A stretch of DNA of 64,000 bases from Lineus longissimus (taxonomy: Eukaryota > Nemertea > Pilidiophora > Heteronemertea > Lineidae): contig NC_088317.1 of NCBI RefSeq assembly GCF_910592395.1, forward strand, positions 13,886,001 through 13,950,000, written 5' to 3'. Position 1 is the first letter of the stretch, and every line of letters starts with the position of its first letter. Below, piece after piece: positions 10,790 through 63,795 of this stretch. A model generated the notes under the pieces. It worked only from the letters and a program-made list of their open reading frames with translations, was not told where the DNA came from and made no database searches. The position numbers were made by a program, and so were the translations under genes.

Positions 10790-11016
10790 TTATAGGTTTA
10801 TACGTTTGCGTTCCAAGTTCTGAATGGAGGCCGGCCATGTAACAATGATCTTTGCACTGGATAATTGCATTCAATGGCAATAGACCGCCCATATGGGAAG
10901 GTTCATGTAATTTTCCTTTATTATGCGTCGAGCCTTATCCCTGTGGTGACATGATTAGACACGCATTGAAAATGGTCAATAAAATATCATTCCTTTGTCC
11001 GAAATTGAATTGATTA

Positions 11017-11690: not shown

Positions 11691-11707
11691 AAATATTGTA
11701 TCAGCAC

Positions 11708-13982: not shown

Positions 13983-14345
13983 ATCACAGTCATAACTTGT
14001 TACTGTTGCTCAGCCACAGTCCAACAATGGACCGGTTTCTTTTGCATAGTAACTGCTTAGATAATAAAAAGATACTCAATTTGGTTAATAAGAGCCAACC
14101 AGGCTTTTAGCAATAATTGACCGCTTGTCTATAACAAGGCCTATTCGGTAACGTCGGTAACATCGATTTCCCTTCATTGACAGTTAACCATGAATGCACG
14201 TTGTCAAAAAGCTATTGTATGTATAGGTGGGCGTTCCTAATGTGCTTTGGTGACCACCAATCAGAAGAAGGACCTTACGTATGTATTCATCACAGCAGCG
14301 CAGCCCTGGTGGTAATGCTCGTGTAACTAATAGCATCAAAGTTAA

Positions 14346-28853: not shown

Positions 28854-29029
28854 CTAGTATGATCCTTTCATCGTCGAATTATGGCTCGAACCATGGCTCG
28901 AATCAAGGCTGGAATCATGGCTGGAATCACGGCTCGAATCATTGCTCGAATCATGGCTCGAATCCTTTACTTTCAATTTTGCTGAGCCTTTTACTTTCTT
29001 TTGAACCTTTTTTATGACCCGGCTTATGG
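28854..29029 (-). CDS. Matrix gene, terminal exon: Asp-Ser-Ser repeats
   Basis: Acceptor CTCTATTTCAG, entered in phase 1. After a Lys-rich start (VIKKVQKKVKG) come seven four-residue units on the pattern DSSH (DSSHDSSNDSSRDSSHDSS, then LDSSHGSSHN), encoded by a 12-base tandem repeat, then TAG. DSS repeats are known from mineral-associated phosphoproteins such as dentin phosphophoryn; here the run is short. The other two frames of the exon hit stops. Confidence 0.75.
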
Positions 29030-32000
29030 CTGAAATAGAGAAGAAATACGTACACATTTTCTAAATACAAGAATATTGATGCTAAGATGATACATGATGT
29101 AAAAGTCGGTAAAATGAACGTTGCGAAGAACGAAATTATAGAAAGGTGTACAGGTGGAAAGGTTTGAAATGTCCTAAGGAGAGGGTGTCCAGGAAACAAA
29201 CGATTCTATAACCCGCTGTTAGGTATTGACAATCATGATCTCTATAAAACTATAGGCCTATTATATACAATAGGGACGGACCCTTTTCACGTGTTGGACA
29301 TTTTAGACTATTACACCGGTGTAAAAGAATTGGACATCCTGGGAATGCAGGACCCCATACAATTGCTGTGTATTGTCAACGAATGTGGTTAATGGTTTGG
29401 TTAGGGTCAGCTACATAATCTTCAACACAGGAACTCGGCGACTCTATTCACTTTAACAAAAGGACCGGACTTAGATTCCGGGGGGACTTGCATTTCTTTT
29501 ACACCGATATAAAAAATATATAATGTAAGCTCGCTTATATATTTTTGCCGGTATGAAATGAATACCTGACCGCAGTTTCGACCGCTGTTTGGAATGATGA
29601 AAATTATGCTCCAAATATGGCTGTCATCGTTCTCAAACAGTTGTTTTCTCGGTTGGTATATGCATTTCTTAATTTCGGAATGGATACTTCCTTCGAGCAT
29701 CAATCAGTAAGCCTACGACCTTGGTACAAAGGACCATTAGTGACGACGAGATCAATTGCCTAACTTTTAGTTGATGTCACTTAGACGTATACAGTTTCAG
29801 TTTTGCCCTTGGGAAATAAGTGGTGCGATTTTGTTTTCCACTCTCAGGCCCGTCGTTCGAAGTTTTTGGTTCGATGTAATTTTCACGACACCATAATAAC
29901 CCTTTGCAATAAAATAGGTGATTTTTCACGAATGGGTTTTATGATCGAAGTATGTCAGTTTTGGCCACCCGATATCTAGGAGCCGTCCGGTAGTTTTTCC
30001 AATGTCACTGCTGTGTACTAGGATGTCTTCTTGGAAGAATATAAATTACATACCTGCTTTTTTACTTTTAGAACTGTCTGTCACTGGAAGAGAAAGTAAT
30101 GAAATATTCAATAAATTCATCACCTTGGTGAGATTTATGTAGTGTTCAAAATGACACAAGTATGATCAGTGGTTGCTCTGCTCCGTGAGTGGTTTTTTTG
30201 GCAAATCGTTGATCTTCGATAGTTACTAGATTATTGATACATTATTTCGATAAATTTTAAAGACTGCTGGATCCACTCACCAATAAGATCCCAAGCCTGA
30301 CAATACCCGATTTGTACCACCGATGGGTAGAGTCTAAACAGCCGAACACAATAGTAGGCCTTTCGCAGCCATAAACGGGGTGGGATATCTATTCAAGAGT
30401 TAACAACGTAATCGTCATGAATAGTCATGACTCTACAGCGGAAGTTTTCATATTACAATTAATAATAGATATAAATTACGGGGAATTAGTTGATATTATA
30501 ATTTTCTTATGTACGTCCAATAGATATCCCACCTCGTTTATGGCAGTGCGAAAGGCCTACTATTATGCCCGGTTGTTTAGACTCTACCCATCGAGGCGGT
30601 AGTAGAAATCGGGTATTGTCGGGCTTGGGATCCTATTGGCGAGTATACCCATTATATTCAACAACGGCCGACTATTCCAAGTTGTCCGCAGACATTACGG
30701 TCCATTCATGCAACGTAGGCACCACAGGAGTAGGACATTGGACAGGTGGTATGAAAAGTTGAAACGACCTAAAATGAAACAAGCCAATCTAAACGAACCA
30801 AATAAACATTTCACTTTTTTGGGGGGAAAATCATGTTTAGAATATGATTGTAAGCGTTAAGTTGATATTTGCATTGAATAAAAATGCAACATTAATCCCA
30901 TTTTAATAATTTGACCCGTTTAAAGTTTAAAAAAGCGAAAATGAGAGAGTAAATGAACAGTTCGTTGTTGAACCATATAAGGCTTGAACTTGAATTATAT
31001 CATTTTTCATGCCATAACATACTTGACCGAATCCTGCAATGAATATTACATGTAAACTTGATCTTCGATTTCAGATTTAAAACGCTTATTTGGCTCATTT
31101 AGTTTGGCTTGTTTCATTTGGCTCGTTTCAATATTTGCATACTACCATGCTTAAGGGGGTAGCAGATAGGAGGCAGTTAAAGAGGTTGAATAGCGCCTCC
31201 AGAAGCAAGCAACAGCGCCACCCGTAGCAGAAATAAGAACTGCTTAGTGACGTCATGGTTTCCATATACGGCATCTCATTTGCATACTTTTACAACCTTA
31301 TTTACTACGAGTTATAAATATGCCAGTAGCACGTGTATCATGCCGGGCGGCGCTGTCAGGTGTTTCCACTATGGGTTACATAATCGGCTACAAAGAGGCC
31401 AGTGTTCTAGTAAATGAAGTTAGCAATGATAGCGAAAGAATGTTAGTGTATGTTACGCAGTCAATAGCGATAGTAGTGAGTTGGAGAGAGGAGAAAATGG
31501 AAAATGGAGAGAATAGTAGTGTGGATTTCGAGTCCCAAGAAGAAACTTTGCAAAGTTTTCATCAAACTGATAATCATATTCCTTCCTTCTCTGTCTCCAA
31601 CAATTAAAAGTTACTGCAGTCAACCTGATCCGTTTATCCGCGAGCGAATCGACGAGACGAAGCATTTTTCAAGCATCCGAATGGTACCTTACAGATCCGC
31701 AAGGGGCGCGTTACCGAAAATGTTGCAAAAATCAATAACGTGATCGTAAATATTGTCATATTTTTCAAAATGAGAGTATGTAAATGATACGCAGACGGTA
31801 AACCAATGAAAGGCCAGTATCTATTGAACCTTACAAGTGATTTGGGGGCCTTGAAACTCCTTATATTTATCAATGAAACCTTATTCCCGCCTAAGGTTTT
31901 GACCGGGCCGTCCAAAACTCCCCATTTTTTGGAGGGCCATTCCCTTTAACGACCAAATTGCTAGCTTACCCTTGCAACCTTTTTCTGTCTGGCTCGATCC

Positions 32001-35000
32001 CTTGGGACACTGACCATTCTTTAATGGTTTAGCGTAGTTTGTAACTGCAAACTTTTTAGATGCTGAAAACGTACTATGGTTTAGTGTCATGTCATAGTCT
32101 TTGATCAGCAAAGACAGTATGAATAAATCTAAAAGTACATTGTATGGTTACACATGTTAGTTTGTCCTACATGTCTAGTAAGCTACAGTGGAACCTCCCT
32201 TAGCGGACACATCTCTATTTAAAGGACACTAGAGTTGGTCCCAAATTGGTTGCTTCCATTCAGTTTGACCTCTCCAATCAGGATACCTCTCTATTAAGGA
32301 CAGCATTTGTCAGTACCGAGGGTGTCCTTAATAGAGAGGTTCTACTGCATGACAAACTGAAGCTGATAAGTATGATACAATCTAATCAACAGATTAAAGT
32401 TCATCTGTTGCATGGCTCTATCATACGTCCTTGATGAAGACTTTTCATAGGGTCGGTTTAAAACCTGGCACTGACATGCTGACTCTGACACTCGTACACA
32501 CCGATACCTCACTTGCTAGAAAACGCAACTACAATGAAAGATCTAGGCAGTACAAAAAAAACGTGGACTAACGATGGCCAGGTCCTGCAACTTTATTGGA
32601 TCTCTGATGCACCTTGTATGCATAATGAATATTTATATCCAAAAAAAGAAGAAAAAGAAACAAAGAATGTGGAAGCAACCTTAAGTTAACTAGGTGCCAA
32701 CTTCTTACATTATAGAGGCGATGGCTTCCATTTTCAATTTGGCCATTTTGATGTCTTTTTTTATAATATGTCATCCCATCACTGAATATTGTTTTCTCGT
32801 CATGTTCAAGGGGATTTTTAAAAATCAGACGTAATCGCGACTTCATTATATTTATTAGCGAGTTTCCGCAATCTCACGAATTACAAATCACGAATTACGA
32901 ATTGCTATATCCGAGAAAGAGACCCCAAGATCATTGGTTTCTAAGCTGATCAACGTCCGTTTCCCTTAGAAGGGTCACTCGCGATCCAAAATTCTTTCAG
33001 CAATCCTTGAATTTCTTAGACGCAGCGGGTTTTGAATTCGTGGTGACGAACTGGCTGAGCCGTTACGCGTTAGTCTACATTATCGCAGCGTCCGTTTTTC
33101 AATAAGACCGGAACTGAACGAAAGCATTAACTTCTAATACATAACACCAGATACAGCTGACTGCAAAAGGGAACGCGAGTTCCTTTGTAATTATAAGTTC
33201 GTAACTGGTAATTCATATTCGTGAGATTTGCGGAAACTCGGTATTACCTTTCCATGCCGAGTTTCCAACCCATGCTTTTCTTAGGGAGGCAGAGTCTGGA
33301 ATTGATGAAAAAGCAACTCTGACTTTCTTGGCCAAAACAAATCGGTATCAGGTCAAAACGTTCCAATTATTCTGAAAATAACTTCTGAGTTCTACTGCCG
33401 GCTTTCAAAATGTCCGGAGTTTGCCTCGAACCAAAAACTTATACTAAATCCACTCTCCAATAAGATCCCAATTTGCACCACTGATAACCACCGAATAACA
33501 TGAAATTAACTCGACCCTCACAGAAAAGCTACAGATTCATATACTTATTCATCATCGCGACGGATCGATATATTTACTGTATCTATATACTGACACTGCC
33601 ATCTTTGTTTTGTTTCACTATCTTTATAATTTAACAAGGCACTATACTTACAACTGAGACCAACCTTCGCCACTGTAAGATTAACATGAAAGCACATGTA
33701 AATTGTGAATTATTCTTGATATTAGAAGTAGGAGACTATCGTTCTTTTTAATAACGGTCACCGATTAAAGATATGTTTGTATTCGTACGTATTTCGTTCA
33801 TGCATAACTTATCGTAGTGCGTAGTGATTACTTTTGCAGTTGTTCAGGCAGGCATCAGGGGTAACAGCGTATTGTGTAATCAATCGTCATCCCCTTCATT
33901 TGCCAAATTAACGGTGACTACGAATACGGGAACCAAAATTAGTAATGCATGAGCGATATTTCGTACGAATGAAATAATTTTGTATTTAATTGGACACCGT
34001 GTTTTATCCGGCAAACAAACGACACGGATGAAATTATCTTCCTCGAACGTGAAGGTCCGTCTATCGTGTATGCCAATTTGTGAATTGATTTTATTCTCTA
34101 TTCCTTCTGTAGTCGCTACCCCTTTTTACCTCAAATCATAAATGGCGCATACTATATGTTAAACCATACACTCTGAATCATTCATCCCCGTAAGTGCAAT
34201 TGGGCAAGTAGAAAATTACTTACTCTGACTTTGCACTGTTTGTAAGTGAATGACTGAAAAGAAAAAAACACAAGACGATGATTTATCGAATTTGCGGTAT
34301 GCGATCGGACAGTATGTTTTTGCGGCTGTTTGTCCAGAAACGCGAATCGACCACATTACAAGGTTTCTCAAGACAATTGCATAACACTTTCACCACTTGA
34401 GACCCGAATGTTTTGCTCATACGAGTACGGTACGTGAATTCTTCAAACATCTCGCCTTGTGAGAGCGATTGACACATTCTATATCGCTTATGTATAATTT
34501 GGTGATATATATGTTTGTTCAGTTGGGGTATTCAATAGAGTATAAATCCATTTCAAGGTAAGGTCCAAGTCATTGCGAAACTGATATATCATATTAATGA
34601 TAATCGCAAATAGCTCGACTTGACAGACAAACAGAAGCATGAAACCAAGTCATATGTATGTTTGTGTTGTTGGGGCGTTCAAAAGAGTAACCGATTTCTA
34701 GGTCTGAGGTCAAGGTCATTGCAAAGCTGGCGAGATGTTTGAAATTATTGCCCCGCTCGACGTATAAACACGCTGGAGAGTAACACGTTTAATTGTGTGG
34801 AGTCAGCAGCTTCTATTAAATGTCTTATATTGAAATTAAACCCCGCATTACACCAGGATACCATTCTCTGATCGTGCGAAATGTATAATACGAGAAATCA
34901 AAGATGATGAAATATAGCCCGAACTAAAACTTGACAGCCATGCTTCTAGAATCACTAAACAATCAGTGTCAATGGCCGCCGGTTAAACTGATGCATGAAC

Positions 35001-38000
35001 AGGTCGATATGGCCGCCGGTTAAACTGATGCATGAACAGGTCGATATGGCCGCCGGTTAAACTGATGCATGAACAGGTCGATATGGCCGCCGGTTAAACT
35101 GATGCATGAACAGGTCGATATGGCCGCCGGTTAAACTGATGCATGAACAGGTCGATGGTGATCTATTGACGGACTTACTTCTGCATCTCGAGCCAGTAGT
35201 TTTCGTCCCTTTCAGACAACGGGAGCCGATCGGGTTCATCATGTTCCCCTTGAGGCCCGCACTCACTGCAGAAGAAAAGAGAACTCTCACATGCTTACAG
35301 AAAGAACAACTGAGCAATTATTAATATCAGGGCGCAGACAGGACGTTATGGCTGCAAGGATTGACGTGGCTGCGGACGTAAGAACAGTTTCTAAGCTGAA
35401 TGACGTCGGCGTAAAAACATCGTTAAATTTGCATGTTTAAAAATCGTAGGAGAAATCGTATAGTGAGATGATGATTACAAGTCCAAGGTGTTCTAAGTGC
35501 TGCTGTGCGTGAAACTGCATAATGCATGCATCTGTGAACCATACATTGCCATTTCGCCTCAAAATTACAGTTTTATCGAATATATTGCCAGTATTGCTAC
35601 ATTGCATTACGCAAAATCCAAATCTCAGTTGAACTGAACGGCAGGTGGCGGCTGAAACTATGAGAGCCACGAAAAAGAAACTCACGTGCTTTCTTATAGC
35701 GACCGTTCTTTGTCACCTCAAAACCATATTTCGCAACTGTAAGAAAACAAATAACAACTTATTTCAGATTGCGATGGAAGAAATGCCGGAAACGACAAAT
35801 GGTTAATTGCACATTTAGCGTGTTCGATTACTGGCGCGGCGCCTGCGCGTGTAAGCGCCAGTGCGTTCTTTTTGGTACTGGCGCCTCATCTCGCGCTAGG
35901 CCGAAGTGAGCGACCCTGGGAGCGAGCTACTTTGGCAAAAAATGGCCACCGCACGTGACCTTTGAGAAAAGATGGCAGACGATCCTGTAAATGCTGGCTT
36001 AGCGATATACACGAAGGTGGTTATTGCATAGACTGCAGCTTTTTTGGTAAAAATAGAATAGCTGTTGGAAGAAATTGATAAATTATAGTGTCGATGTAGT
36101 TTTTGTAAAATACGCACACCCGGTAGTGTGTCAGGTCATTCTTTTTACACCTACACAAAATGAGGCAAAGCATCCCTGAATTAAGCATACAAATATTGAA
36201 TAGCCTACCGTTTATGTTAACTTTGATCAAGTCGTTGACTGAAAATTAAAGTTAATGATCATTATTCAGCCCTTTCTTTAATGAAATGCCTCGCTTAACT
36301 AATACATATACTAAGTGACACAAAAAAGATCATACACTTCTGATTTTGAGCAGCCCCCGGAATATGAATATGAGCAAGAATTATGGTCATGACCTCGGCT
36401 CCGCTTCGGTTTTGGTCAACCTCGCAGATTTGGTGAGATAATCAATACCCCCAATTCGGTGACTTCCCCCATGTGCATTTACACGAAATATTATAGATTC
36501 CATTCAAAGCGCAATAATTGTTCGAACGATTTTGTTTTTTCAATGCTTTTCCAGTTTTTTTCTATATCTTAAACTCGAATGAGATTCGGACGAATTGAGG
36601 TCACTGCAATATTTCCACTAAAATTGCGTTCCTTACATGTAGCAAATATTATTTGCGTTAGTTCTTTAAGCAACGTGGCGGAAAATGTTCGAGAAAAAAA
36701 TACGGTTAATTTCAAACGCAGTAAACCACGTAAAACATAAAGTTGCATTTAAATCTATTCAAATAGGCGAATATGTCGTGTTACCTTTGCATAACTCTCC
36801 GTGGACTATGGCGGTACTCCCATCGGGACATTTGCCCTTCAGTAGAGAGGGAATCACCAGGATGGATTTCTTGGATCCTCGAATTTTGGTTTTTTTCTGG
36901 TCCCTGGCACCTTTAAAAGTAAAAATATAATGTGGATGTGACAATGAGATTCCAACCACAGAAAGAAATTTAAAACCGTAGAACTGCTACATGAGTTTAG
37001 ACATTTTCTGAATAAATGGTCACACCCTCAATGATAAGGCTCTTCAAACAGATGCTTTCTACTGAAGTATTATGTCTCGTCGACAAAGAATGTTTTATAT
37101 CGCGTTGAATTCAGGCGACCAGCAGTGCGGCAAGGTGGCTAATGCTCGCGCCTCATTTTTATCCATAGCACACGTCACGTAACGGGCGGACCTGCATGAA
37201 GCATCAGTATTAATTCAAGTTGAACACCATAACTTTAAATCAAGTTGATTTAAAGTCATGGTGTTCAATTTCATAGCAGCTCGAACACAAGTCAGAATTT
37301 GTTCTACTTACTGGAGACAGAGACTGAAATGGAGGAAAAGTGGAAAGTTAACGTGGCGGCATATACATGTCGGTCTTCAACATTGCCTTTTTAGGCATTT
37401 TGAAGAGTTCTAGCAAACTAGTTCACGCGTTCCTGCGAGACGTTGAAATCCCCGATGCCAAAATCTCAAGTAAAACCTGCTAAACTTGCATCACTAAAAA
37501 ATGACAAGCTGTATGTCACAATATGTTACCACCCTCAAGGTATGCAAGAGCCTAAAAGGTCAGTTTCTAATCTAGAAATACATATACATGTATTTCAATC
37601 AAGTACTGCATCTTGATGTGTACGTTTATGTGTTATGTCACATACGACGCCGGCCGTGTGAGGCGTCGCCGTCAATACAATTCTTTCCTAACCAGTGTTA
37701 GTCATTGTTAGCCGTACGTACTTCCTCGTGATGAACATGTTAGCCTGAAGTGTCGTCTGTGGACTGGAAGTAAAAACAATATTTCGCAATTCATACAACA
37801 GTAACTAGGTCTAACCAGTTCAACATCGTTGATTCTCCGACATGAAGAATGCATGGGCCTGATAGATGACGCTTGAATTCGGGACTCTTATAACAAATTA
37901 ATCTTTCATTTGTGCCAAAAAGATGTATCGTTCATCAGTATATCGAGAAGAGATAACGACTAATTGAGATTAGCAAGCAATAGGTTTCAACCCGAATGCT

Positions 38001-56000: not shown

Positions 56001-59000
56001 TCGAATAGACCATATCAGGGTAACAGGTGGCACCACATGACGGCAGAAAAGACGTCTCCAAATTGTTTTCAACGTTATTCCTCTAATGACGTGGCATACT
56101 GATTTGACCTTGACCTTGACCTCTGACCTTCAAGGTCATTGCATAACCTGAATGGGCAACCTCAATAACCTGGGCATAGGTGAAGGTTCCATGACTCTAC
56201 TCCTCCCACAGACCGAGATAGTTCAAATTATCAAAATTGATATATGAAAATCTCATGATATCTTAATGATCCAAATGCCTGACACTGTACATTTTCATGT
56301 CATTTAACTCTTTGATAACTACACATTACCTAGACTTGGTTGCACATTGCTAACTTACTCAGATGTCAAGATATCTCAAAATATCAAATTCGATATATCA
56401 ATATCACCATGACCCTGATAACTGAGATTGAATTTGATGCACTCATTGAAATCAGGCACATCAATAACCTAGGGTAGACCTTGTTTCCAAACTTCTAACT
56501 TGAATAGGGACAGAGATATTCGCATCTGAAAAGTGTGACAGACAAAATCTCACATCTCAAAATGTCAATTTCACCATGATCCCCGTGTCGTAAGTTGACA
56601 ATGATGGGCTCATTAGATTGCTAGTGTCCACAAACCTAGGGGTAGGAACTGTTTCTAGACCTCTAACCCTCATTTTAACTGAGCTGTGACAGTCATAAGA
56701 CTGGACAGACACACACACACACAGACACACACACACACAGACACACACACACACAGACAGACACCATGACCAAACACAATATGGTTCCTGTTCTGAAAGA
56801 ACCAGGAACCATAACAATACCCTCTGCCATAAACTGGAAGAAGTGGCCACCGCCGCGGGAAAGCAAAAAGGCCTAGAGTTTACATGTGTACATGGTCAGG
56901 CGGCGACAGGACGAGGTCCACTTCAGTGATACCGCGGCGGTTCTTTATTCTAATTTCTACAGCAATACATCCACATGTAGGCACTTTATATACCCTTGTT
57001 TCTCACTCCTAACGTCAAGCCTGATTTTTTCATAGTGCACATATCTAGGCCCGTAATGGGGTAATTTTTAGGCCTTCTATATTGCCATGGACGCTGCTGG
57101 TCAATCAAGTATTGGCCTGAAGAAACTTACTCCCGTCGTGGGCCTTCCAAAATGTACACATACACTAGCTTACTACAGTGGACGTTGGGCGTGCGAAATA
57201 GCATTCCGCGACGTTATTATTTATAGGTCACAAGGTCATTTGAATAAGATATTGATGACGTTTTAGTCACGTGACAGTCGGACATCGACACTTATTTCTA
57301 CGCATTTGAGCTTATTTCAAAGTCAATTATATTTGACCCTGCATTGTTTTTAGCATGAATGATACCATAGAGTCAGAGAGAGAAATATTCAGAACAATTA
57401 TGTAGTATTTCCAACACTCGGACATGTGCCAGATTGAATCTAACTGCCCTAGTTATAAAGCCTGAATCCATTACGAAACCGCATGTTTGTCCGACATTGC
57501 TTGTAATTCAGCGATGGGGAAATAGAGGGCAGCAGCTGCAGTGACCTCATTATCGCGGAATGCTATTAGAGTAAATGGGAGGTCTGCTACGTTAAATTAC
57601 AACATTAGAGTGACACGTAGCTGGATGGCTCAGGTATGGGTTCATGATCGATGAGTATCTGCCTCATTGAAACTGTAAAATACCGTATCTGCTTTGACGT
57701 ACAGGGACTCGTCCTTAACATTGCAACTGCTTTTGACAGCATCTTATAGTTTATGCTATATCATTAGTACGTGTTTGGCCCTTTACATTGCAGTTAGAAG
57801 AAATCGGCCCTCCCGCATCTAGGCCCAATTCCCATTGTTCTACTGTCAAATCAAATCGTTATCAGGGCAAATCTTCATAAAATCGACCCCCTCGAAACAC
57901 CTTCCAACTGGGTCGAGAGGCAAAAAACGTATTGTGTATCGATGAGAGCTCACTTTTACATGCACAGAGCTGACATCCGTCGGTATCATGCTCGTATTCA
58001 CTGCACTTCTGGCGACATCGTGGCACACGGCATTCTGAAAATAAACGATTTGTTTACCAAGATACATTTTGTTCCTCAGAGTTTAATTTCACCGACTCCC
58101 AATGCCATGACACTCAGTGTACAAACAAAAGCGAGGCACTTCCCGGCAAGTAGCCTCGAGTACGCGTAACATCAGGATACGATTCAATCTCTGACCTCTT
58201 GCCGGTATCACCAAGGATCGCATCTACAACATGGTTGTTCAGAATTAATTGGATTTTAATGTTGCATCGTATTCATCCAAATCCGATATAAGTGTCAAAA
58301 ATAACTTTTACCTCAACCTCATCAACACACATACCTTTTTTACACGTTGGCACCATCTTACAGCGCTCTTCCTTACAACCCTTTGCTGCCACCAGGCGAC
58401 AAATCATTCCGATACTGCAAGTCTTTTTCTGAAAAATGTAGACGCCTAGAGCTGAAAACATGACATAAAATACAAGTTGTCGAGAGAAAATATACATTGT
58501 AATTTTTGAATAACTACAGCATTATTCATGATAAAAGTTGGTTGGAATATTAACGACCGATTTCCTTTCTGTCAGTGGCCTCAAAAAGTCATGACGTTTC
58601 TGGTCCACGACCGGGTTTACCAATAGATACAATCTTAAGCACATACTGGGTTTTGTGCAAAGCGCTCCACTGTTACAAGTTGCCTTTGGTTCGAGGTAAA
58701 AATTCTAACGGTATAAATCCTGAGGGAAAAATCCTAACGGGATGAATCCAAATAATGTTCAGGTAGGTAATTAACGATCCAAAAACTTATAAATGAATTT
58801 TTATCAAATATAATTTCAGACGAAAAAAGTTCAACAAATACATTCCAAAATTGATGAAAGATAGCAAAAATATTTCCAAAAATCTCAAAATATTCCAAAT
58901 ATCTCAGAATATTTGAAAAGAAAAAAATTCTGAAAAAATCATAAATTTTCGGATTTTTACCTCCGGGAAGATTTTTTGGAATTTTTCCCGTTAGGATTTT

Positions 59001-62000
59001 TCCCCTTAGGATTTTTACAGTTCGGAGTTTTCCCGTTAGGATTTTTACCTAAATTCCTTGCCTTTACGTTGAACGTTACAAAGAGATACAATTTGTTGTC
59101 TGACATTTAATTGGATTGTAGTGAAGCTGTTGACTGGTTTCCCGCTCTGTTGCTTGTCAAAACGAGCCCAATGATCATGATCACCAGTCCTATAACCTGC
59201 TGTATCTATTTTAGTACTCAGCCGTTTTCCGTCAAATTTTTCAAAGCGGTTTTTTCAGGGTTGTCACACATGTTTGTTGTCAACATGTTTATTGTCCTTA
59301 CGAATTTTCAACGCTATTGCGATGAACAATTCCTCGCAGGCCAATGAAATGAAAGTTCTTAAATGCACCTTTCGTTCAACCAAATGTTTACAATGACTTC
59401 GCATAGAGTTGACTTACCAGACATGGGTTCATTGTAACTGAAAAAAGAAACCAACGAACATCAAAATCATTTGAATAAACCTTCAAATATTCGAATAGCT
59501 GCTCCGACGCCCCGAGAGATGTTTAGATTTAATTCGGTAACTTTCCCCCAGCGGGCCATTTTCGAAGTCCTTTTTCAAACCTTGGCCCACTTTACGGTTT
59601 GAAATACCTTTTTCATATTCTCCCGATAGTTGGACAGTCATATTCAAAATGATCTAATATCAATAATTTACTTGAGTTTCAAATCTGGATATATGCGTCA
59701 AATCGTTTCTTAAAGAAGGCATTATCGAACCACTCTGAATACATATTATGTTTAAGTCGTTCTCGTAATCTATTTTAATCTCACTATCTGAAGTGTTGTC
59801 TTAGAATTGGTAGTCGATTTGGGCGAACTTACTTGCTTTGTCGTCACCGGCACATTTCTCGTCAGATTTCTTATCTTTTCCTTTGCTTCCTTTCCCCGCT
59901 GCCTTCTTATCCTTTCCTCCAGCCTTCTTATCTTTCCCTGCTCCCTTCTTATCCTTTCCTCCAGCCTTCTTATCCTTCCCTCCAGCCTTCTTATCCTTCC
60001 CTCCAGCCTTCTTATCCTTCCCTCCAGACTTCTTATCCTTCCCACCAGACTTCTTATCCTTCTCGCCGGCCTTCTTGGTCTTCGCACCCTTGACCTTCTT
60101 CCCAGTAGCTTTCTTGCCTTTAGTCGATTTCTTCTCTTTCTTTCCACCTTTCTTTGTTTTACTTCCGCCTTTTTTCCCCTTCTCAGACTTTTTCCCTTTT
60201 CCCTTTTTAGTAGTCTTTTTCTTCTCTTTACCAGCTTTCTTTTTACCGGATTTCTTGGTATCTTTCTTAGCCTTTCCCTTCTTCTTTTTCGCTTTATCCT
60301 TTTTCGAAGCTGCTCTTCTATACCTTAGCAAGATTGACCTTTTGGATCTCTTCAATCCTTTTTTCCCCTTGGTGCCTTTGGTTACTTTCTTACCACCCTT
60401 TTTCTTTGCTGACCCCTCACTACCTTTCTTTTTCGCTTTCCCTTTATCACCCTTTTCCCCAGCTTTCCCCTTATCACCCTTTTTTCCAGTTTTCCCCTTA
60501 CCACCCTTTTTTCCAGCTTTCCCCTTGTCACCCTTTTTTCCAGTTTCCCCTTTACCATCCTTTTTTCCAGCTTTCCCCTTATCACCCTTTTTTCCAGCTT
60601 TCCCCTTATCACCTTTTTTGGTAGCTTTCCCTTTGTCACCTTTTTTCGTACCTTTCGCCTTACTATCTTTCTTTCCCCCACCTTTTTTACTTGTCTTTCC
60701 TTTGTCTTTCTTCTCTCCTTTCCCACCCTTATTTCCTTTTTCACCCTTTTTTGCGGCTCCTTTCTTTGATTTTCCTTTTTTGGTGATAATACCATGTACT
60801 TTTTTCTCAGTGATTATGCCGTGTTTTTTGTCCTTGGATTTGGCTGAACGAACTAATTTGCACTTCTCACGCCGGCCCTCTGCGTTAATGCACATGTTGG
60901 CAGCATCTTTCAGATTCTTTCCTATCATGGGCTTTCCCTTGGATGTGACCCTTGGTGCTGGTGGACCTAAAATAGAGAACAAAATGTAAATGGCTCGTCA
61001 CGTACATCGTTCTGTTAAAGAGTAAGTAGAATGGGTCTGCACTACTGCTTATTATTGCTGTACCCACAGTGAATATTTATGCTGAGCGGATTTCAAATAG
61101 CATACAAATGCAGGTAGCCTACTCTGGGTCTATTCTTGTTTTACTTGCAACTCCTGCCAAATAAACACACACTGGAGGCCGTTGATTACATCGTGTGACC
61201 ATCAATCCTTGTTGCGGCGGTGTGACGGTGCTCCACCGTCGGCGACTCGATGACTTGATTTTCCACATGGTATGACACAGTTTTCGCCAACATATGGCCG
61301 ACGTCTTTTTGGCAAAAAGCAGAACTTTTACCCCTTGAACGGCCGATACAAGTGCTCAAGGTGACATATGGCAATATTTCGGCTAAGAAAATTGACCAGT
61401 TGTGATTTATCCCGATGTCAGACAGTTCAGATGTTTTTTACCCCGTATGCATCATCAATGTTTTTTATCATGCTCGTACGTGTAGAATTCCATGTGACAG
61501 GAACGAGAGAACTAGGATCCTATAGTTTCAAGGCAAATTTTACTTACGCCGCCCACACAACTGCCAAATTTTGCTCACAATGCCTTGACGAGACACATCA
61601 GAGACAACAGGTATATTGTTGCCTGCCCACTCTTCAGTCTTTTTCTTCTCACCGACCGTTGCGTAGAAGATGTTCATAGACTTTTTATCGCTGACTCGAT
61701 TCTTGATTGATCTGATAGCATTGAACGCATCCCTCTCACTCGTCCTGTCGGGGTAATCATAGCCACCCGTCATCCCAATCACCTGGCAAGGCTTGTTACT
61801 CGGTTGTTTGGACAAGTCGTCTAGTCTTTTAAACAGATTCTTTTCGTTAGACTCCGCCTTCTTGTAACTGCAAATATACAGTACGGGTGATTCGCAGGCG
61901 GTGGCTGTCGATTATGTGACAGTTCAAACTTCTGCACTGGCCCAAACTCTGGCTCCTACCACAACCAAGACATCATCGCTCTCATTTTTCATTTCAGATA

Positions 62001-63795
62001 TTTCCATTTCAGATATAGCACCAATGGTAATTTTATTGAATTTGGGGAACCTGGGGAACAAAGCCGATCTTCTGGATAACACAGAACTTGGGGAACATGG
62101 GGATGACCCCGTTTGAGTGACTGGACATAACTTGCATGTCCGATAATGTGTTATTGGGTCAACGATGTTGATTTAAATATCAGCAGTTAATTAGAATTAC
62201 CGATCCCGATGGCTCAGTGGTTAAAAGGCGTCCGCCTCCGTGAACGGGAAGGTCGAATGTTCGAGGCTCGCGGGTACCTCGTTCCGACGAGGCCGTTTTG
62301 TTAACCGCCGGCTATTTGAATGAAGGGTACAAACTGCCTTTTCGCCAGGCTACTGGCAATAGAAATAGTAGTTTGGAGGAAAGAGTGTCCTATGATTAAG
62401 CCAGCTGTGACAGTTTACTGAATCGAACAAAGTGTACATAATCATAAATAAGCAATAAACAACTACATGTTGCCTACCTCAACTGTTCCACCTGCCGAAT
62501 GTATTTCGGCAAGTCCTCCTTCGTGTCAAACTTGAACACTTTGACTGGTTGTTTTGATCCCAAGTGGGCGATAACGTAGAGAGACAACCCGCCGGGGCCG
62601 AGAGGGAAAGCACGAAGAAGTGTCTTGACGAGAGACTTGGTGAAGTCGAACCCCGTGGAACCAGTCTTGTCGGAGCTGTCCAGGGTCAAGTACACCGTGG
62701 CGGACAGGTGCTTAGTATCAGCTAGTTGAAGAAATGATAATTTGTAAAAAAGTTAATAAACTACATGTACATGCATCATGCAATATGGAACGACGTCATA
62801 ATGCTTTATTGATCGAGTAGTACTGAGGCAACTCTTGGTAAAGGTTTTCACAGAGGCATAGAGGCCCCAAACTAGACCGCCAAAAGGCAATTATATAAAA
62901 GGCAATACATGAAAAACCTTCGGAATTAGCCTTCCAGTTCTCCCTTACGAGAGAACTGATTGTTCTTCTAAGAATCAATGACAATCGAAAAAGAAAATTG
63001 CATTGAGAGTTTTTGTTAGAATCAACAGTCTATAAAAGGAACCATAATATAAAAATTGAATTCGTAATAGATTATAATACTTTCATTAAGTACATGTAGT
63101 CTTGGATTAATGAAATGAGGACATGATTGAGCAAAAATGATTGCTTGTCATTTGTAATACTGGATCCACTCGCAAATAAGATCCCAAGCCCGACAATACT
63201 CGATTTGTACCGCCTCGATGGGAAGAGTCTAGCCGAACGCAATAGTAGGCCTTTCGCAGCCATAAAAGGGGTGGGATATCTATTCAAGAGTTAACAACGT
63301 AATCTTCATGAATAGTCATGACTATACAGCGGAACATTTCATGTTACAATTAAAGACCAATTGGAAGAAACAAAGACAAGATATCCCGACCCCTTTTTTG
63401 GCTGCGAAAGGCCTACTATGCCCGGTTGTTTAGACTCCACCCATCGAGGCGGTAGTAGAAATAGGGTATTGTCGGGCTTGGAATCCTATTGGTGAGTGGA
63501 TCCAGTATCATCTCATGTAATTTCATAAATGCATAAACAGAGAAACACACTGAGAACCATAATAAACGGCCAGCAATCTATTTGGTCTTCAAAATAAATT
63601 GATCTTCGCGGGAGACTCTGCGATCAGTGCTGCGATATCGTGCTGTGGCAATAAAAAATAGCTTGTTTGCGGGAAGCTTTTGTGTTAACTACCATGTATT
63701 GCTAAACATTTACATTAGATATGCAGTGACATTCGCCGAATGAGACCCTTGTAAAAAAATTTACTCACCTTCGCTTATGGTTGGTAGAGTGCCAC
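28854..63795 (-). CDS. Large multi-exon secreted modular matrix-type protein gene (whole span, 5' end outside window)
   Basis: I chain 33 exons running leftward from 63795 to the stop at 28854, about 1,310 codons, with consistent phases and GT..AG sites throughout. Domain order: a short Pro/Thr segment, a von Willebrand factor A domain, a Lys/Gly-rich repeat exon, a follistatin-like six-Cys segment, an antistasin-like domain, then a long run of one-exon two-Cys modules interspersed with 12-54-nt linker exons and a second antistasin-like domain, ending in Asp-Ser-Ser repeats. The signal peptide and first exons should lie beyond the right edge. The combination of adhesive (VWA), protease-inhibitor-like, polycationic and DSS segments suggests an extracellular or mineral-matrix protein; that is inference. 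Splitting into two genes is possible but no internal start or stop demands it. Confidence 0.72.
29316..29506. mobile_element. MITE family M2, copy 1
   Basis: Ends CCGGTGTAAAAGAATTGGAC and GCATTTCTTTTACACCG are inverted repeats. The copy is closely related to 51978-52333, which carries a nested insertion absent here. Confidence 0.8.
30054..30083 (-). CDS. Matrix gene, 30-nt linker exon
   Basis: Acceptor TTTCTCTTCCAG and donor GTATGT bracket exactly 30 bases, phase 1-1, encoding TDSSKSKKA. It precedes the DSS terminal exon and shares its Ser/Lys character. Confidence 0.55.
30267..30649. mobile_element. Foldback MITE family M3, copy 1
   Basis: Starts CTGGATCCACTCACCAATAA; the right half is an inverted copy containing GGCCTACTATTATGCCCGG and ending imperfectly near CTATTGGCGAG. 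A better-preserved copy lies at 63160-63505. Confidence 0.8.
31970..32062 (-). CDS. Matrix gene, two-Cys module exon
   Basis: Acceptor ACGTTTTCAG, donor GTAAGC, phase 1-1. Encodes SKKFAVTNYAKPL then NGQCPKGSSQTEKGCKG, a clean example of the G-x-C-P-x-G...G-C-K module. Confidence 0.78.
32186..32347. mobile_element. Short MITE, mariner/pogo-like ends
   Basis: CAGTGGAACCTCCCTTAGCG at left and AATAGAGAGGTTCTACTG at right are inverted; a TA precedes the left end. Ends of the type CAGTRGAACCTC are common in pogo/Tigger-derived MITEs. Confidence 0.65.
32859..33242. mobile_element. MITE-like element with GAGTTTCCGCAA ends
   Basis: GAGTTTCCGCAATCTCACGA at 32861 is inverted as CGTGAGATTTGCGGAAACTC ending at 33241. 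About 380 bases, no coding region. Confidence 0.7.
33652..33672 (-). CDS. Matrix gene, 21-nt linker exon
   Basis: Acceptor TTAATCTTACAG and donor GTAAGT flank 21 bases in phase 1-1, encoding AKVGLS. The same size class and a similar pattern (RKLGLR) occur at 50969-50989. Confidence 0.5.
34972..35156. repeat. 37-base minisatellite, five perfect copies
   Basis: Five identical head-to-tail copies of a 37-base unit beginning ATGGCCGCCGGTTAAACTGA, at 34972, 35009, 35046, 35083 and 35120. The array ends 22 bases from the donor site of the adjoining exon, inside the intron. Confidence 0.95.
35179..35265 (-). CDS. Matrix gene, two-Cys module exon
   Basis: Acceptor TTTTCTTCTGCAG, donor GTAAGT, phase 1-1. 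Encodes SAGLKGNMMNPIGS then RCLKGTKTTGSRCR; the Pro of the module is replaced by Leu. Confidence 0.78.
35686..35736 (-). CDS. Matrix gene, 51-nt linker exon
   Basis: Acceptor GTTTTCTTACAG, donor GTGAGT, phase 1-1, encoding AKYGFEVTKNGRYKKA. It has no cysteine. A second AG lies only about 30 bases past the donor and is not used in this model. Confidence 0.55.
36785..36910 (-). CDS. Matrix gene, two-Cys module exon
   Basis: Acceptor TTACTTTTAAAG, donor GTAACA, phase 1-1. Encodes a basic stretch (DQKKTKIRGSKKSILVIP) then LKGKCPDGSTAIVHGELCKG, the clearest form of the module. Confidence 0.8.
37220..37268. repeat. Near-perfect hairpin
   Basis: TTGAACACCATAACTTTAAA is followed almost immediately by its inverted copy (TTTAAAGTCATGGTGTTCAA). 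With about 24-base arms and virtually no loop it could form a cruciform; it may be the tip of an old foldback element. Confidence 0.75.
37312..37323 (-). CDS. Matrix gene, possible 12-nt microexon
   Basis: CCATTTCAG and GTAAGT bracket TCTCTGTCTCCA, 12 bases in phase 1-1 (S-V-S). Both sites are good, but a 12-base exon cannot be proven from sequence alone. Confidence 0.3.
38490..38519 (-). CDS. Matrix gene, 30-nt linker exon
   Basis: TTCTTTTCCAG and GTAAGT flank 30 bases in phase 1-1 encoding VNLEEARKE, an acidic helical linker like those at 46119 and 47141. Confidence 0.55.
39132..39218 (-). CDS. Matrix gene, two-Cys module exon
   Basis: Acceptor TTCTTTTCCAAG, donor GTATGT, phase 1-1. Encodes KLLKFYIPKIGAKCPQGTIY then QPQKTGCSG; both cysteines and the C-P-x-G-T core are present. 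Confidence 0.78.
40662..40775 (-). CDS. Matrix gene, two-Cys module exon with glycine patch
   Basis: Phase 1-1 between a GACTCCAG acceptor and a GTAAGT donor. Encodes TFYVKRFSGNLLVGGGYAKM then GNKCPPTWVKQGKNCF. The GGG-Y/F patch recurs at 53768-53887, indicating related exons. Confidence 0.78.
40925..41232. mobile_element. MITE family M1, copy 3
   Basis: Same orientation and interior as copy 1 (CCAGCAGGACCG, AAAACTGCCTCGC, TCCTCCTGGCCAGG), right end CCAAGTTGTCCCTTTAA; the left end is eroded. Lies in an intron of the large gene. Confidence 0.75.
41431..41529 (-). CDS. Matrix gene, two-Cys module exon
   Basis: Acceptor CATTTCCAG, donor GTACGT, phase 1-1. Encodes GLRVGKNVVTFKPLTKV then CPSGFELMKKSKECK; the spacing between the two cysteines is 12 residues. 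Confidence 0.78.
42270..42380 (-). CDS. Matrix gene, module exon that has lost its cysteines
   Basis: Acceptor GTCTTTCAG, donor GTAAGT, phase 1-1. Encodes PFTDPMSVGQRADAILITLV then DGKVPKGFHKYGNLAR: the G-K-x-P-K-G core is kept but the first Cys is Val and the second is Leu or absent. Confidence 0.7.
42623..43443. mobile_element. Foldback element FB-3 (TATGG...CCATA ends, 6-bp TSD)
   Basis: An 821-base element with arms of about 300 bases. It begins TATGGGCGGTTATTTCCGC, ends GCGGAAATAACCGCCCATA, and TGTTAC is duplicated at 42617-42622 and 43444-43449. The arms contain tandem GTCGGATAACTAGT-like units. A central 230-base unique segment carries a small ORF. Intronic. Confidence 0.88.
42951..43109 (+). 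CDS. 52-codon ORF at the centre of FB-3
   Basis: ATG at 42951 to TGA at 43109, fully open, in the only non-inverted part of the element. The product starts MATNQDPHVLQRAARMLQ and continues with an amphipathic helix (MLQDVVNLLGRP). The ATG follows AGAGAAAA, a reasonable context. It may be the N-terminus of a transposon protein or a captured host exon; no family recognised. Confidence 0.4.
   Translation: MATNQDPHVLQRAARMLQDVVNLLGRPTQDQVPLDNRVDNIAASAKCKSKAI
43923..44012 (-). CDS. Matrix gene, second antistasin-like domain exon
   Basis: Acceptor GTTTCAG, donor GTAAGG, phase 1-1. Six cysteines with spacing C-x4-C-x3-C-x10-C-x2-C-x-C (CAIPKCSSTC ... GCPTCNC), the antistasin-like protease-inhibitor pattern, close to that of the exon at 57954. 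Confidence 0.82.
44419..44472 (-). CDS. Matrix gene, 54-nt linker exon
   Basis: CCATTTCAG acceptor, GTAAGT donor, phase 1-1. Encodes RLLSIEKTIKIDEEHTK, a charged helix without cysteine. Confidence 0.6.
45240..45660. repeat. Diverged repeats around TTTGGCAAGC / CCAAACAGG
   Basis: At least five direct and inverted occurrences of CTGTTTGGCAAGC and its complement within 420 bases, spaced about 60 bases. Probably a decayed satellite or nested foldback ends. No genes. Confidence 0.5.
46119..46148 (-). CDS. Matrix gene, 30-nt linker exon
   Basis: CTTTTTTTCAG and GTAAGT flank 30 bases in phase 1-1 encoding VDEKRLESE. Confidence 0.55.
46737..46832 (-). CDS. Matrix gene, two-Cys module exon
   Basis: TTTGGATTTCCAG acceptor, GTGAGT donor, phase 1-1. 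Encodes KIEQKGDKIRRFQEM then PCLAGTHDTRDGGWCR; the C-x-x-G-T core and closing G-x-C are kept. Confidence 0.78.
47141..47170 (-). CDS. Matrix gene, 30-nt linker exon
   Basis: CATTTCAG and GTAAGT flank 30 bases in phase 1-1 encoding DSRGDVVYR. It contains an Arg-Gly-Asp tripeptide, a possible integrin-binding sequence if the protein is extracellular. Confidence 0.55.
48627..48722 (-). CDS. Matrix gene, two-Cys module exon
   Basis: TTTTCTGCATTCAG acceptor, GTAACC donor, phase 1-1. Encodes DRRPAYIQPFENG then KCPKGTKKKGRGTGLICKG. Confidence 0.8.
50316..50336 (-). CDS. Matrix gene, 21-nt linker exon
   Basis: TCGTTTCAG and GTAGGT flank 21 bases in phase 1-1 encoding SLKHWG. Confidence 0.45.
50969..50989 (-). 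CDS. Matrix gene, 21-nt linker exon
   Basis: TTGTATCTTTCAG and GTGAGT flank 21 bases in phase 1-1 encoding RKLGLR. Confidence 0.5.
51379..51645. repeat. GGTAAAAATCCC-type inverted repeat
   Basis: Tandem GGTAAATATCCCTCCA-like units on the left face inverted units (CAGGAGGGATATTTA) on the right. Its outer motif AGGTAAAAATCC is also found at the edges of the repeats at 20460-20952 and 58696-59052. Confidence 0.75.
51683..51796 (-). CDS. Matrix gene, Cys module exon (three cysteines)
   Basis: CTCTCTTGACAG acceptor, GTAAGT donor, phase 1-1. Encodes DLRVLVIPRCNGLCVKGSAP then HHCKVTDTTEV. The extra cysteine and longer tail mark it as a diverged module. Confidence 0.75.
51978..52333. mobile_element. 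MITE family M2, copy 2, with nested insertion
   Basis: Matches 29316-29506 on both sides of an extra segment at 52131-52296. Ends GGTGTAAAAGGAATGGACG and TGCATTTCTTTTACACCGG. Confidence 0.85.
52131..52296. mobile_element. Nested 166-base insertion in M2 copy 2
   Basis: Absent from M2 copy 1, which reads continuously GGACCGGACTTAGATTCC at this point. The insert has short inverted ends (CCGGTGTGACAGCGGATA and ATCCCTTGCACACCGG) with CCGG at both junctions. Confidence 0.8.
52976..53062 (-). CDS. Matrix gene, two-Cys module exon
   Basis: TTTGTTTTCAG acceptor, GTAAGT donor, phase 1-1. Encodes KMSGTRIEIPRKTTT then CRSGFRRSGAKCV; the cysteines are nine residues apart. Confidence 0.78.
53768..53887 (-). 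CDS. Matrix gene, two-Cys module exon with glycine patch
   Basis: TTTTATCTGCAG acceptor, GTAAGT donor, phase 1-1. Encodes QVNVNSNNGLVAGGGFVTM then KKGKDCLATFKLVDGLCL. Related to the exon at 40662. Confidence 0.8.
54270..54405. repeat. Small inverted repeat, GTCTCACCAAAACCGC family
   Basis: GATTGTCTCACCAAAATCGC faces GCGGTTTTGGTGAGACAACC about 90 bases away. Diverged relatives occur near 27848-27945 and 36385-36465. Confidence 0.7.
55119..55223 (-). CDS. Matrix gene, two-Cys module exon
   Basis: CTGCTCTTACAG acceptor, GTAGGA donor, phase 1-1. Encodes RLKIGIQRVSYSLRIRDG then ERACTGGFARMDGLCQ. Confidence 0.78.
55658..55771 (-). CDS. Matrix gene, Cys module exon
   Basis: CTTGTTTCAG acceptor, GTAAGT donor, phase 1-1. 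Encodes PLLGPIGCPGLVGDYLMIP then IKGLCPQGLKNIGKCCR; four cysteines, with the standard module at the C-terminal end. Confidence 0.8.
56703..56763. repeat. (CA)n / (CAGACA) microsatellite
   Basis: ACACACACACACAGACACAC repeated over about 60 bases. Intronic. Confidence 0.92.
57200..57566. mobile_element. MITE-like element with ATAGCATTCCGCGA ends
   Basis: ATAGCATTCCGCGA at 57199 is inverted as TCGCGGAATGCTAT ending near 57568, enclosing about 370 bases. No target duplication is clear. Confidence 0.55.
57954..58034 (-). CDS. Matrix gene, first antistasin-like domain exon
   Basis: GTTTATTTTCAG acceptor, GTGAGC donor, phase 1-1. Cysteine spacing C-x4-C-x3-C-x9-C-x2-C-x-C (ECRVPRCRQKC ... DGCQLCAC) matches antistasin-like domains, known in leech protease inhibitors and in diverse extracellular proteins. 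One complete domain per exon. Confidence 0.85.
58335..58428 (-). CDS. Matrix gene, follistatin-like Cys exon
   Basis: CATTTTTCAG acceptor, GTATGT donor, phase 0 in and 1 out. With the preceding small exon it gives six cysteines: NPCLKKTCSIGMICRLV, then GCKEERCKMVPTC. The NPC..K.C..GM.C pattern resembles follistatin N-terminal-like modules, which commonly adjoin antistasin or Kazal domains. An upstream acceptor at about 58450 would create a stop in the chained phase and is rejected. Confidence 0.75.
58696..59052. repeat. GTAAAAATCC-ended inverted repeat, copy 2
   Basis: GGTAAAAATTCTAACGG at left, tandem GTTAGGATTTTTACC-like units at right, A/T-rich core shared with 20460-20952 (CCAAATATCTCAGAATATTT). 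Confidence 0.75.
59418..59437 (-). CDS. Matrix gene, 20-nt exon
   Basis: CTTTTTTCAG and GTAAGT flank 20 bases (phase 1 in, 0 out) encoding TMNPCL. It changes phase and supplies the first cysteine of the follistatin-like segment, which supports it despite its size. Confidence 0.6.
59833..60966 (-). CDS. Matrix gene, Lys/Gly-rich repeat exon
   Basis: Acceptor TCTCTATTTTAG, donor GTAAGT, 1,134 bases, phase 1-1. After a Cys pair (MCINAEGRREKC near residues 25-35) it encodes about 340 residues of Lys-rich repeats: KKGDKGKAG decamers in the first half and KDKKAGG heptamers in the second. Between them is a break, KRSKRSILLRYRR (residues 205-216), with a furin-like RSKR. Such polycationic repeats occur in mineral-matrix and adhesive proteins. 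The antisense frames here are long only because the repeat avoids stops. Confidence 0.88.
61548..61867 (-). CDS. Matrix gene, VWA domain second exon
   Basis: Acceptor GTATATTTGCAG, donor GTAAGT, phase 2 in and 1 out. Encodes CQVIGMTGGYDYP, a helix with AFNAIRSIKNRV, MNIFYATVGEKK and GIVSKIWQLC, the second half of a von Willebrand factor A fold. The usual T-D-G of the metal site reads T-G-G. Confidence 0.85.
62203..62400 (+). mobile_element. tRNA-derived SINE-like sequence
   Basis: An A-box-like TGGCTCAGTGGTTAAAAGGC (62210) and a B-box-like GTTCGAGGCTC (62259) sit at RNA polymerase III spacing, followed by a non-tRNA body. The cloverleaf is imperfect, so a SINE is more likely than a functional tRNA. 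No poly-A tail or target duplication seen. Confidence 0.55.
62478..62721 (-). CDS. Matrix gene, VWA domain first exon
   Basis: Acceptor TTTCTTCAACTAG, donor GTAGGC, phase 1 in and 2 out. Encodes HLSATVYLTLDSSDKTGST, the first strand and metal-site loop of a VWA domain, then FTKSLVKTLLRAF and LSLYVIAHLG. The MIDAS motif D-x-S-x-S is D-S-S-D-K, so metal binding may be lost. Confidence 0.85.
63160..63505. mobile_element. Foldback MITE family M3, copy 2 (TA TSD)
   Basis: CTGGATCCACTCGCAAATAA and its inverted counterpart TTGGTGAGTGGATCCAG bound 346 bases, flanked by TA on both sides (63158-63159, 63506-63507). About 75 percent of the element is arm. Related to 30267-30649, with a remnant near 33446. 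Confidence 0.85.
63769..63795 (-). CDS. Matrix gene, 27-nt exon (most 5' seen)
   Basis: TTTTCATCGTTAG and GTGAGT flank 27 bases in phase 1-1 encoding GTLPTISE. A short Pro/Thr linker ahead of the VWA exon; earlier exons should lie beyond the window. Confidence 0.5.

What the first reader, a model, noticed from the sequence alone, without database searches (positions are those of the whole stretch)
28854..63795. A 33-exon modular secreted-type gene: VWA, Lys-rich, antistasin, two-Cys modules, DSS tail
Seen directly: exon-like segments with good splice sites chain in one frame over 35 kb on the minus strand. Known families: VWA and antistasin-like. The total architecture (VWA + polylysine repeats + antistasin + about 14 short two-Cys modules + DSS tail) matches no protein I can name. 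Inference: extracellular, adhesive or biomineral matrix protein.
Basis: partly seen in the sequence, partly recalled or inferred. Interest (0 to 1): 0.88.

Follow-up and report, generated by a model that had tools for sequence, protein, structure and literature searches.

The report
Ribbon-worm secreted matrix gene, micro-exon array
This is most of one real gene of the bootlace worm that encodes a large, very lysine-rich secreted-type protein of unknown role, built from binding domains and a long array of small cysteine modules and tiny exons, and it may be a building protein of the worm's mucus or body matrix.

Summary
The chain is real. The window comes from the bootlace worm Lineus longissimus (Nemertea). 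Forty-one exons on the minus strand (63795 to 28854) splice into one frame. The 1,410-residue product equals residues 420-1829 of the NCBI protein "uncharacterized protein LOC135494363" exactly. The gene is therefore annotated, though unnamed; its first 419 residues lie off the right edge. Order: leader, Lys-rich, two PAN, VWA, Lys-rich/collagen-like, Cys array, DSS tail. Nineteen exons are 54 nt or shorter; 18 are phase-symmetric. The array looks like two ancient 16-exon blocks. Three protein searches found no relative. Best reading: a secreted polycationic matrix or mucus protein whose skippable micro-exons could vary it. A shell or cuticle role is unlikely. It fails published micro-exon-gene criteria (18 of 41 exons, longest run 3). 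Function and splice variants are untested.

The parts
63769..63795 (-). exon 1 of the visible part, 27 nt, phase 1-1 (GTLPTISE); gene start and N-terminal 419 aa lie beyond 64000
62478..62721 (-). exon 2, first half of VWA domain (DSSDK where the DxSxS metal motif is usual)
61548..61867 (-). exon 3, second half of VWA (TGG where TDG is usual)
59833..60966 (-). exon 4, Lys-rich (377 aa, 40% Lys, net +121); contains furin-type motifs KRSKRS and RYRR
60407..60640 (-). proline-free collagen-like Gly-X-Y tract (P0001 725-802, 23 of 26 triplets with Gly), made by a 27-bp minisatellite (60435-60662) coding GDKGKAGKK
   Evidence: window coordinates derived from the residue numbers
59901..60076 (-). 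21-bp minisatellite coding GGKDKKA, 7-residue repeat (no Collagen hit)
59418..59437 (-). exon 5, 20-nt micro-exon (the only non-symmetric one; phase 1 to 0)
   Evidence: required by P0001
58335..58428 (-). exon 6, Cys-rich (with exon 5: MNPCLKKTCSIGMICRLVAAKGCKEERCKMVPTC)
   Evidence: no Pfam family
57954..58034 (-). exon 7, antistasin-like Cys pattern; opens block 1 (exons 7-22)
   Evidence: pattern only
51683..55771 (-). exons 8-12: five module exons (55771-55658, 55223-55119, 53887-53768, 53062-52976, 51796-51683)
49472..50989 (-). exons 13-15: micro-exons of 21, 21, 12 nt
48627..48722 (-). exon 16: two-Cys module
47141..48350 (-). exons 17-19: micro-exons of 30, 21, 30 nt; exon 19 (47170-47141, weak acceptor score) carries the protein's only RGD
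46737..46832 (-). exon 20: two-Cys module
44419..46148 (-). exons 21-22: micro-exons of 30 and 54 nt
43923..44012 (-). exon 23: second antistasin-like exon; opens block 2 (exons 23-38)
   Evidence: pattern only
39132..42380 (-). exons 24-28: five module exons; exon 24 (42380-42270) has no Cys
37312..38519 (-). exons 29-31: micro-exons of 30, 42, 12 nt
36785..36910 (-). exon 32: two-Cys module
35686..36238 (-). exons 33-34: micro-exons of 30 and 51 nt
35179..35265 (-). exon 35: two-Cys module
33248..34253 (-). exons 36-38: micro-exons of 30, 21, 48 nt (exon 37 with weak site scores)
31970..32062 (-). exon 39: two-Cys module (its best partner is exon 16)
30054..30083 (-). exon 40: 30-nt micro-exon
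28854..29029 (-). exon 41: terminal exon, basic stretch then six DSS repeats, stop codon TAG

Best explanation
One gene of Lineus longissimus encodes a secreted-type protein of 1,829 aa (198 kDa, 20% Lys, pI about 10.2). Shown: gene structure, domain order, phase symmetry, relatedness of the modules and a two-block layout. Inferred, the mechanism: glands or epithelium secrete it into the mucus or subepithelial matrix. PAN and VWA domains hold it to glycans and proteins. The Lys-rich tracts, partly able to form a collagen-like Gly-X-Y helix, condense with polyanionic mucins or sulphated sugars, and the Ser/Asp tail may be phosphorylated and bind calcium. The antistasin-like and two-Cys modules form a compact rod, each module closed by its own disulphide. 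The array grew by tandem duplication of phase-1 exons (module plus about three micro-exons, then a 16-exon block). Because these exons can be dropped without a frame shift, splicing could vary the rod.
For: Exact identity to one annotated protein over 41 exons. PAN_1 in two copies, 8.6e-9; VWA 1.5e-5. Net charge +121 in exon 4 and +94 from exon 8 to exon 40. Collagen hit 1e-9 for the Gly-X-Y tract alone; 8 of 8 composition shuffles and the natural 7-mer tract gave none. Cys pair present in 14 of 15 modules and both absent in the other. Modules more alike than shuffled ones (mean pair score 20.0 against 12.4, sd 0.5, 200 shuffles). Collinear pairing of block 1 with block 2 is reached by 13 of 40,320 permutations, the observed order included. 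Micro-exon splice sites exceed controls. L. longissimus releases substantial mucus when provoked (PMC5864730, passages). Antistasin-like proteins are reported from nemertean mucus and proboscis proteomes (PMC11768458, passages). VWA-bearing matrilin-like proteins are named among adhesive constituents in a gastropod (PMC11178922, passages).
Against: No expression or proteome data were seen. The VWA metal motif looks incomplete (DSSDK; TGG for TDG, alignment), so metal-dependent binding is doubtful. The collagen hit vanishes when the whole exon or whole protein is scanned; the tract was cut out after I saw the pattern, has no proline and at most 13 consecutive Gly-X-Y triplets. Some module pairs favour a non-collinear partner (16 with 39; 10 with 27 over 26), and the mean score at a shift of eight modules (27.6) is as high as at the collinear shift of seven (27.4). 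No isoform was seen: skipping is inferred from symmetry only. The antistasin-like exons match no family model. Two furin-type motifs in exon 4 could mean that the protein is cut in two.
Confidence: 0.5

Rival explanations
1. Internal extracellular-matrix protein (matrilin or collagen VI/XII-like) of body wall, proboscis sheath or blood vessel, not a mucus component.
For: VWA plus a collagen-like tract is a combination known from matrix proteins (general knowledge); PAN and VWA found; one RGD, on its own 30-nt exon 19.
Against: Twenty percent Lys is unusual for such proteins (general knowledge); the collagen-like tract is short and proline-free; VWA metal motif incomplete.
Confidence: 0.25
2. 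Precursor cut at the furin-type sites in exon 4 into an N-terminal PAN-VWA part and a C-terminal basic Cys-module part acting in defence (antimicrobial or protease-inhibiting).
For: R-x-K/R-R motifs at residues 822 and 830; antistasin-like Cys patterns; antistasin-like inhibitors reported in nemertean secretions (passages).
Against: Dibasic motifs are expected in so Lys-rich a sequence; antistasin membership not confirmed by any model; no related smaller protein (320-1,017 aa) found.
Confidence: 0.15
3. Biomineral or hard-tissue matrix protein.
For: VWA with charged low-complexity segments recalls shell-matrix proteins; antistasin-like domains occur in limpet shell proteins (PMC3374290, passages).
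Against: Heteronemerteans have no shell, tube, chaetae or stylet (general knowledge); no chitin-binding domain found; net charge strongly basic, whereas Pif is described as acidic.
Confidence: 0.05
4. Annotation artefact: two neighbouring genes or false micro-exons joined by the predictor.
For: The chain is long, and I could not see the transcript evidence behind the NCBI model.
Against: My chain was built before the protein was found, and 39 of its 41 exons stand unchanged; the NCBI model uses a 20-nt non-symmetric exon with a shifted acceptor, which suggests transcript support; related modules run through the array.
Confidence: 0.05

Closest known systems
Matrilin-like / VWA proteins of animal glues and matrices
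   Same: secreted, VWA domain, probable role in a gel or matrix (gastropod glue example, PMC11178922 passages)
   Different: here no EGF or lectin domain was found; two PAN domains, Lys-rich and collagen-like tracts, and an unknown two-Cys array are present
Micro-exon genes (MEGs) of flatworms
   Same: secreted-type product; many symmetric tiny exons between introns; exon skipping would keep frame
   Different: fails two of the three published numeric criteria (criteria; counts); large ordinary domains; different phylum; sequence relation not tested
Pif / BMSP shell matrix proteins
   Same: large secreted VWA proteins (PMC3374290 passages)
   Different: no chitin-binding domain found; strongly basic; animal without shell
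Antistasin-family protease inhibitors
   Same: two exons with a Cys pattern ending Gly-Cys-x-x-Cys-x-Cys (family pattern recalled)
   Different: no family model or solved structure matched

Membership tests
Micro-exon gene (criteria of PMC7653826, passages) | at least seven exons | tested here: met
   41 exons visible in the window
[quoted passage not shown]
   18 of 41 visible exons; exons beyond the right edge not counted
[quoted passage not shown]
   longest run three (exons 13-15, 17-19, 29-31, 36-38), in the visible part
Micro-exon gene | N-terminal signal peptide | tested here: inconclusive
   hydrophobic leader MRGWLLLLLVILTVLVMISHVDG in P0001, read by eye, no predictor run
VWA domain protein | VWA profile match | tested here: met
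   25.7 bits, cut-off 23.8, in a 260-aa piece; below cut-off in longer queries (23.5 and 20.8 bits) and for the first exon alone (17.7 bits)
VWA domain protein | complete metal site (DxSxS and TDG) | tested here: not met
   DSSDK and TGG in the alignment to a solved VWA (itself a weak match, E 0.048); motif recalled
PAN/apple domain protein | PAN profile match | tested here: met
   PAN_1 35.6 bits, cut-off 21.4, two stretches in a 494-aa piece; 20.1 bits, just below, in the whole protein
Collagen-like protein | Gly-X-Y repeat profile match | tested here: inconclusive
   38.4 bits, cut-off 27.2, for the 81-aa tract alone, 8 of 8 shuffles negative; no hit for the whole exon or protein
Antistasin family | Pfam antistasin match | tested here: not met
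   no antistasin match at E<=10 for either exon, a 70-aa piece or the protein; PDB searches gave none either (their best hits, E 0.04-0.33, are unrelated Cys-rich or other proteins)
Pif/BMSP shell matrix | VWA plus chitin-binding domain | tested here: not met
   no chitin-binding domain in the Pfam scans of P0001 and its pieces

The most novel reading that the evidence does not exclude
A free-living worm outside the flatworms has evolved, independently, a micro-exon-type splicing array inside a large matrix or mucus protein: repeated units of one two-Cys module and about three skippable micro-exons, letting each gland or individual secrete many length and ligand variants of one rod (for example with or without the RGD exon), in a protein whose module family has no known relative.
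Probability: 0.2. Interest if true: 0.75.

Novelty: new variant of a known kind. Interest (0 to 1): 0.5.

Why it matters
The nemertean secretion papers that I saw deal mainly with toxins. This gene gives a concrete candidate for a lineage-restricted polycationic matrix or mucus protein with an undescribed two-Cys module. It also shows phase-symmetric micro-exons amplified together with a module in a phylum for which one search found no micro-exon paper ('microexon' + 'nemertea', 0 papers; the hyphenated spelling was not searched with Nemertea). If isoform variation is real, it would be a second origin of a strategy described in parasitic flatworms.

Tried and rejected
Biomineral reading: set aside because of the species and the missing chitin-binding domain. 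Candidate exon 46258-46238 (EMLHCA), in my first chain, is absent from the NCBI protein and from the non-model candidates listed at threshold 11; kept only as a possible alternative exon. Acceptor 58451 for exon 6 was wrong. Antistasin membership could not be confirmed. Direct-strand DNA self-comparison of the gene gave six pairs, all mobile-element-like or tandem copies and none that joins the two blocks collinearly, so the block duplication, if real, is old. A profile of the 15 modules found nothing convincing among solved structures (16 hits up to E 10, best 0.12). NCBIfam hits to bacterial collagen-like adhesins lie far below cut-off (best 25.4 against 400 bits) and are read as the Gly-X-Y register plus low complexity. 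Rfam and tRNA scans were empty.

Limits: the homolog search needs shared 5-residue words and similar length, so "no relative" means none at that sensitivity (in one search the length limit excluded P0001 itself). Transcript support for the NCBI model was not seen. The 30-nt test (6 of 7 first micro-exons after a module, P 0.004) was chosen after seeing the data and would drop to 5 of 7 if exon 46258-46238 were real. The block test used eight chosen exon pairs; exon 39 has no partner in it. The collagen control had eight shuffles only.

Full report
WHAT IS THERE. On the minus strand, exon-like segments between good acceptor and donor sites chain in one frame from 63795 to the stop codon ending at 28854. 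My first chain, picked by hand from splice-site candidates and from reading the sequence, had 41 exons, 4,259 nt and one stop, at its end. A search of 5.8 billion proteins with residues 575-1350 of its translation returned a single protein among 5,273 candidates: NCBI "uncharacterized protein LOC135494363 [Lineus longissimus]", 1,829 aa. After two changes dictated by that protein (a 20-nt exon at 59437-59418 with the next acceptor at 58428; one candidate 21-nt exon left out), the spliced window sequence equals residues 420-1829 exactly; 39 of my 41 exons stood unchanged. The contig length given with the hit, 19,406,143, fits chromosome 10 of the published assembly, 19.41 Mb, OU343001.1 (section 5 of PMC8593623).

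ARCHITECTURE. From P0001: a hydrophobic leader; a 98-residue Lys-rich stretch (39% Lys); a short unassigned segment; two closely similar PAN domains (PAN_1 8.6e-9 for the region); a VWA domain (in the window); exon 4 with 377 residues, 40% Lys; a Cys-rich piece; two antistasin-like exons; 15 copies of a module, 14 with the Cys pair; 17 symmetric micro-exons within the array; and a tail with six DSS repeats. The whole is 198 kDa, pI about 10.2, with 361 Lys and 65 Cys. The VWA metal site seems incomplete: DSSDK instead of DxSxS and TGG instead of TDG (alignment; the motif is recalled).

THE LYSINE EXON IS PARTLY COLLAGEN-LIKE. Its 27-bp minisatellite codes GDKGKAGKK, three Gly-X-Y triplets. Over residues 725-802, 23 of 26 triplets start with Gly, with no proline. 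Scanned alone, the tract matches Pfam Collagen at 1e-9, 38.4 bits against a cut-off of 27.2. Eight of eight shuffles of the same residues and the neighbouring natural 7-residue repeat gave no hit. In the whole exon or protein no Collagen hit is reported, and I cut the tract out after seeing the pattern. I take this as suggestive, not established.

MICRO-EXONS. Of 41 visible exons, 19 are 54 nt or shorter; 18 of these have lengths divisible by three and phase 1 on both sides, so each can be skipped without frame change. Using splice matrices trained on the larger exons only, 16 of the 18 are recovered at the strictest of five thresholds among 24 candidates, against 3 on the other strand of the same region and 2 and 0 on the two strands of the flank; at the laxest, 17 among 32, against 9, 12 and 6. 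Exons 19 and 37 have weak sites. Of the nine non-model candidates listed at threshold 11, seven lie inside model exons (six modules and exon 6) and two in introns.

THE ARRAY LOOKS DUPLICATED. With A = antistasin-like, M = module, m = micro-exon, exons 7-22 read A MMMMM mmm M mmm M mm and exons 23-38 read A MMMMM mmm M mm M mmm; exon 39 (M), 40 (m) and the tail follow. Aligning eight exons of the first block with their collinear partners scores 269; 13 of 40,320 permutations, the observed order included, do as well (modules only: 13 of 5,040). Against a simple picture: the best single module pair is 16 with 39, exon 10 scores higher with 27 than with 26, and a shift of eight modules scores on average as high (27.6) as the collinear shift of seven (27.4). 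No collinear DNA similarity remains between the blocks, so the event, if real, is old. Modules as a set are more similar than shuffled modules (20.0 against 12.4, sd 0.5). Six of seven micro-exons directly after a module are exactly 30 nt (post hoc). The Cys pair is present in 14 modules and both are absent from exon 24, a natural sign that they bond to each other (inference).

RELATIVES. A search with the PAN-VWA region returned only P0001 among 7,235 candidates. A 581-aa query of the Cys array found none at E<=0.1 among 7,063 candidates, P0001 being outside its length range. The module profile found nothing convincing among solved structures (best E 0.12). The best solved-structure matches of the VWA are microneme protein 2 chains (E 0.048, not significant). 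The array is thus lineage-restricted at this sensitivity; few nemertean proteomes are public as far as I know, so orthologues in sister species may well exist.

HOW IT PROBABLY WORKS. A secreted basic protein with PAN and VWA domains, polycationic and collagen-like stretches and a Cys-module rod suits a gel or matrix that binds polyanions. The animal releases substantial mucus when provoked (PMC5864730, passages). I favour a mucus or epithelial matrix role at 0.5, body-wall matrix at 0.25, a processed defence precursor at 0.15. Nothing here measures expression, location or binding.

COMPARISON. By the operational micro-exon-gene rule (exons <70 nt and divisible by three; at least seven exons; at least half micro; run of four or more; PMC7653826 passages) this gene fails: 18 of 41 visible exons and longest run three. 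It resembles such genes in principle only; a review of schistosome micro-exon genes (PMC10526429, passages) describes secreted products and 3-81 bp exons. It is not a Pif/BMSP protein (no chitin-binding domain found). Antistasin membership is not confirmed. The gene name had no hit in the paper library, nor had 'microexon' with 'nemertea'.

VERDICT. Real, single, already annotated but uncharacterised; unusual in architecture and exon layout; ordinary in that its parts are familiar extracellular kinds. Interest 0.5.

Noticed in passing
window 63508-63160 and 30655-30267: Two copies (80% alike over 392 bp) of what looks, from reading it, like an inverted-repeat mobile element inside introns of this gene.
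   Followed up: partly
window 52130-51980 and 29468-29318: Two 94% identical 151-bp pieces in introns, probably a recent non-autonomous transposon.
   Followed up: no
window 34972-35156: Five identical copies of a 37-bp unit in the intron just after exon 35.
   Followed up: no
window 412-1395, 19805-20384, 42718-43350: Three elements with long inverted arms (longest pair in each 98, 99 and 95% complementary) that contain short tandem repeats in the arms; probable mobile elements.
   Followed up: partly
window 5861-9273, minus strand: ORFs that look like a Polinton/Maverick-type element: a weak adenovirus-protease match (Peptidase_C5, E 0.0024, 18 bits, below cut-off 21.3) beside a 429-aa ORF without Pfam match that resembles a capsid protein from memory; two further ORFs there had no match.
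   Followed up: partly
window 9773-14009: Several copies, in both orientations, of ORFs resembling PIF/Harbinger-type transposases (from memory; the two scanned, 11304-11984 and 13575-14009, had no Pfam hit).
   Followed up: partly
window 21338-22270, plus strand: ORF with kelch motifs (Kelch_1 1.6e-15), perhaps a gene fragment or exon of a kelch-like gene.
   Followed up: partly
window 47170-47141: The protein's only RGD motif sits on a 30-nt, phase-symmetric micro-exon (exon 19), so skipping it would remove a possible integrin site; one RGD can easily arise by chance.
   Followed up: no
window 46258-46238: A 21-nt segment with splice-like borders (EMLHCA) that keeps the frame but is not used in the NCBI protein; a possible alternative exon.
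   Followed up: partly
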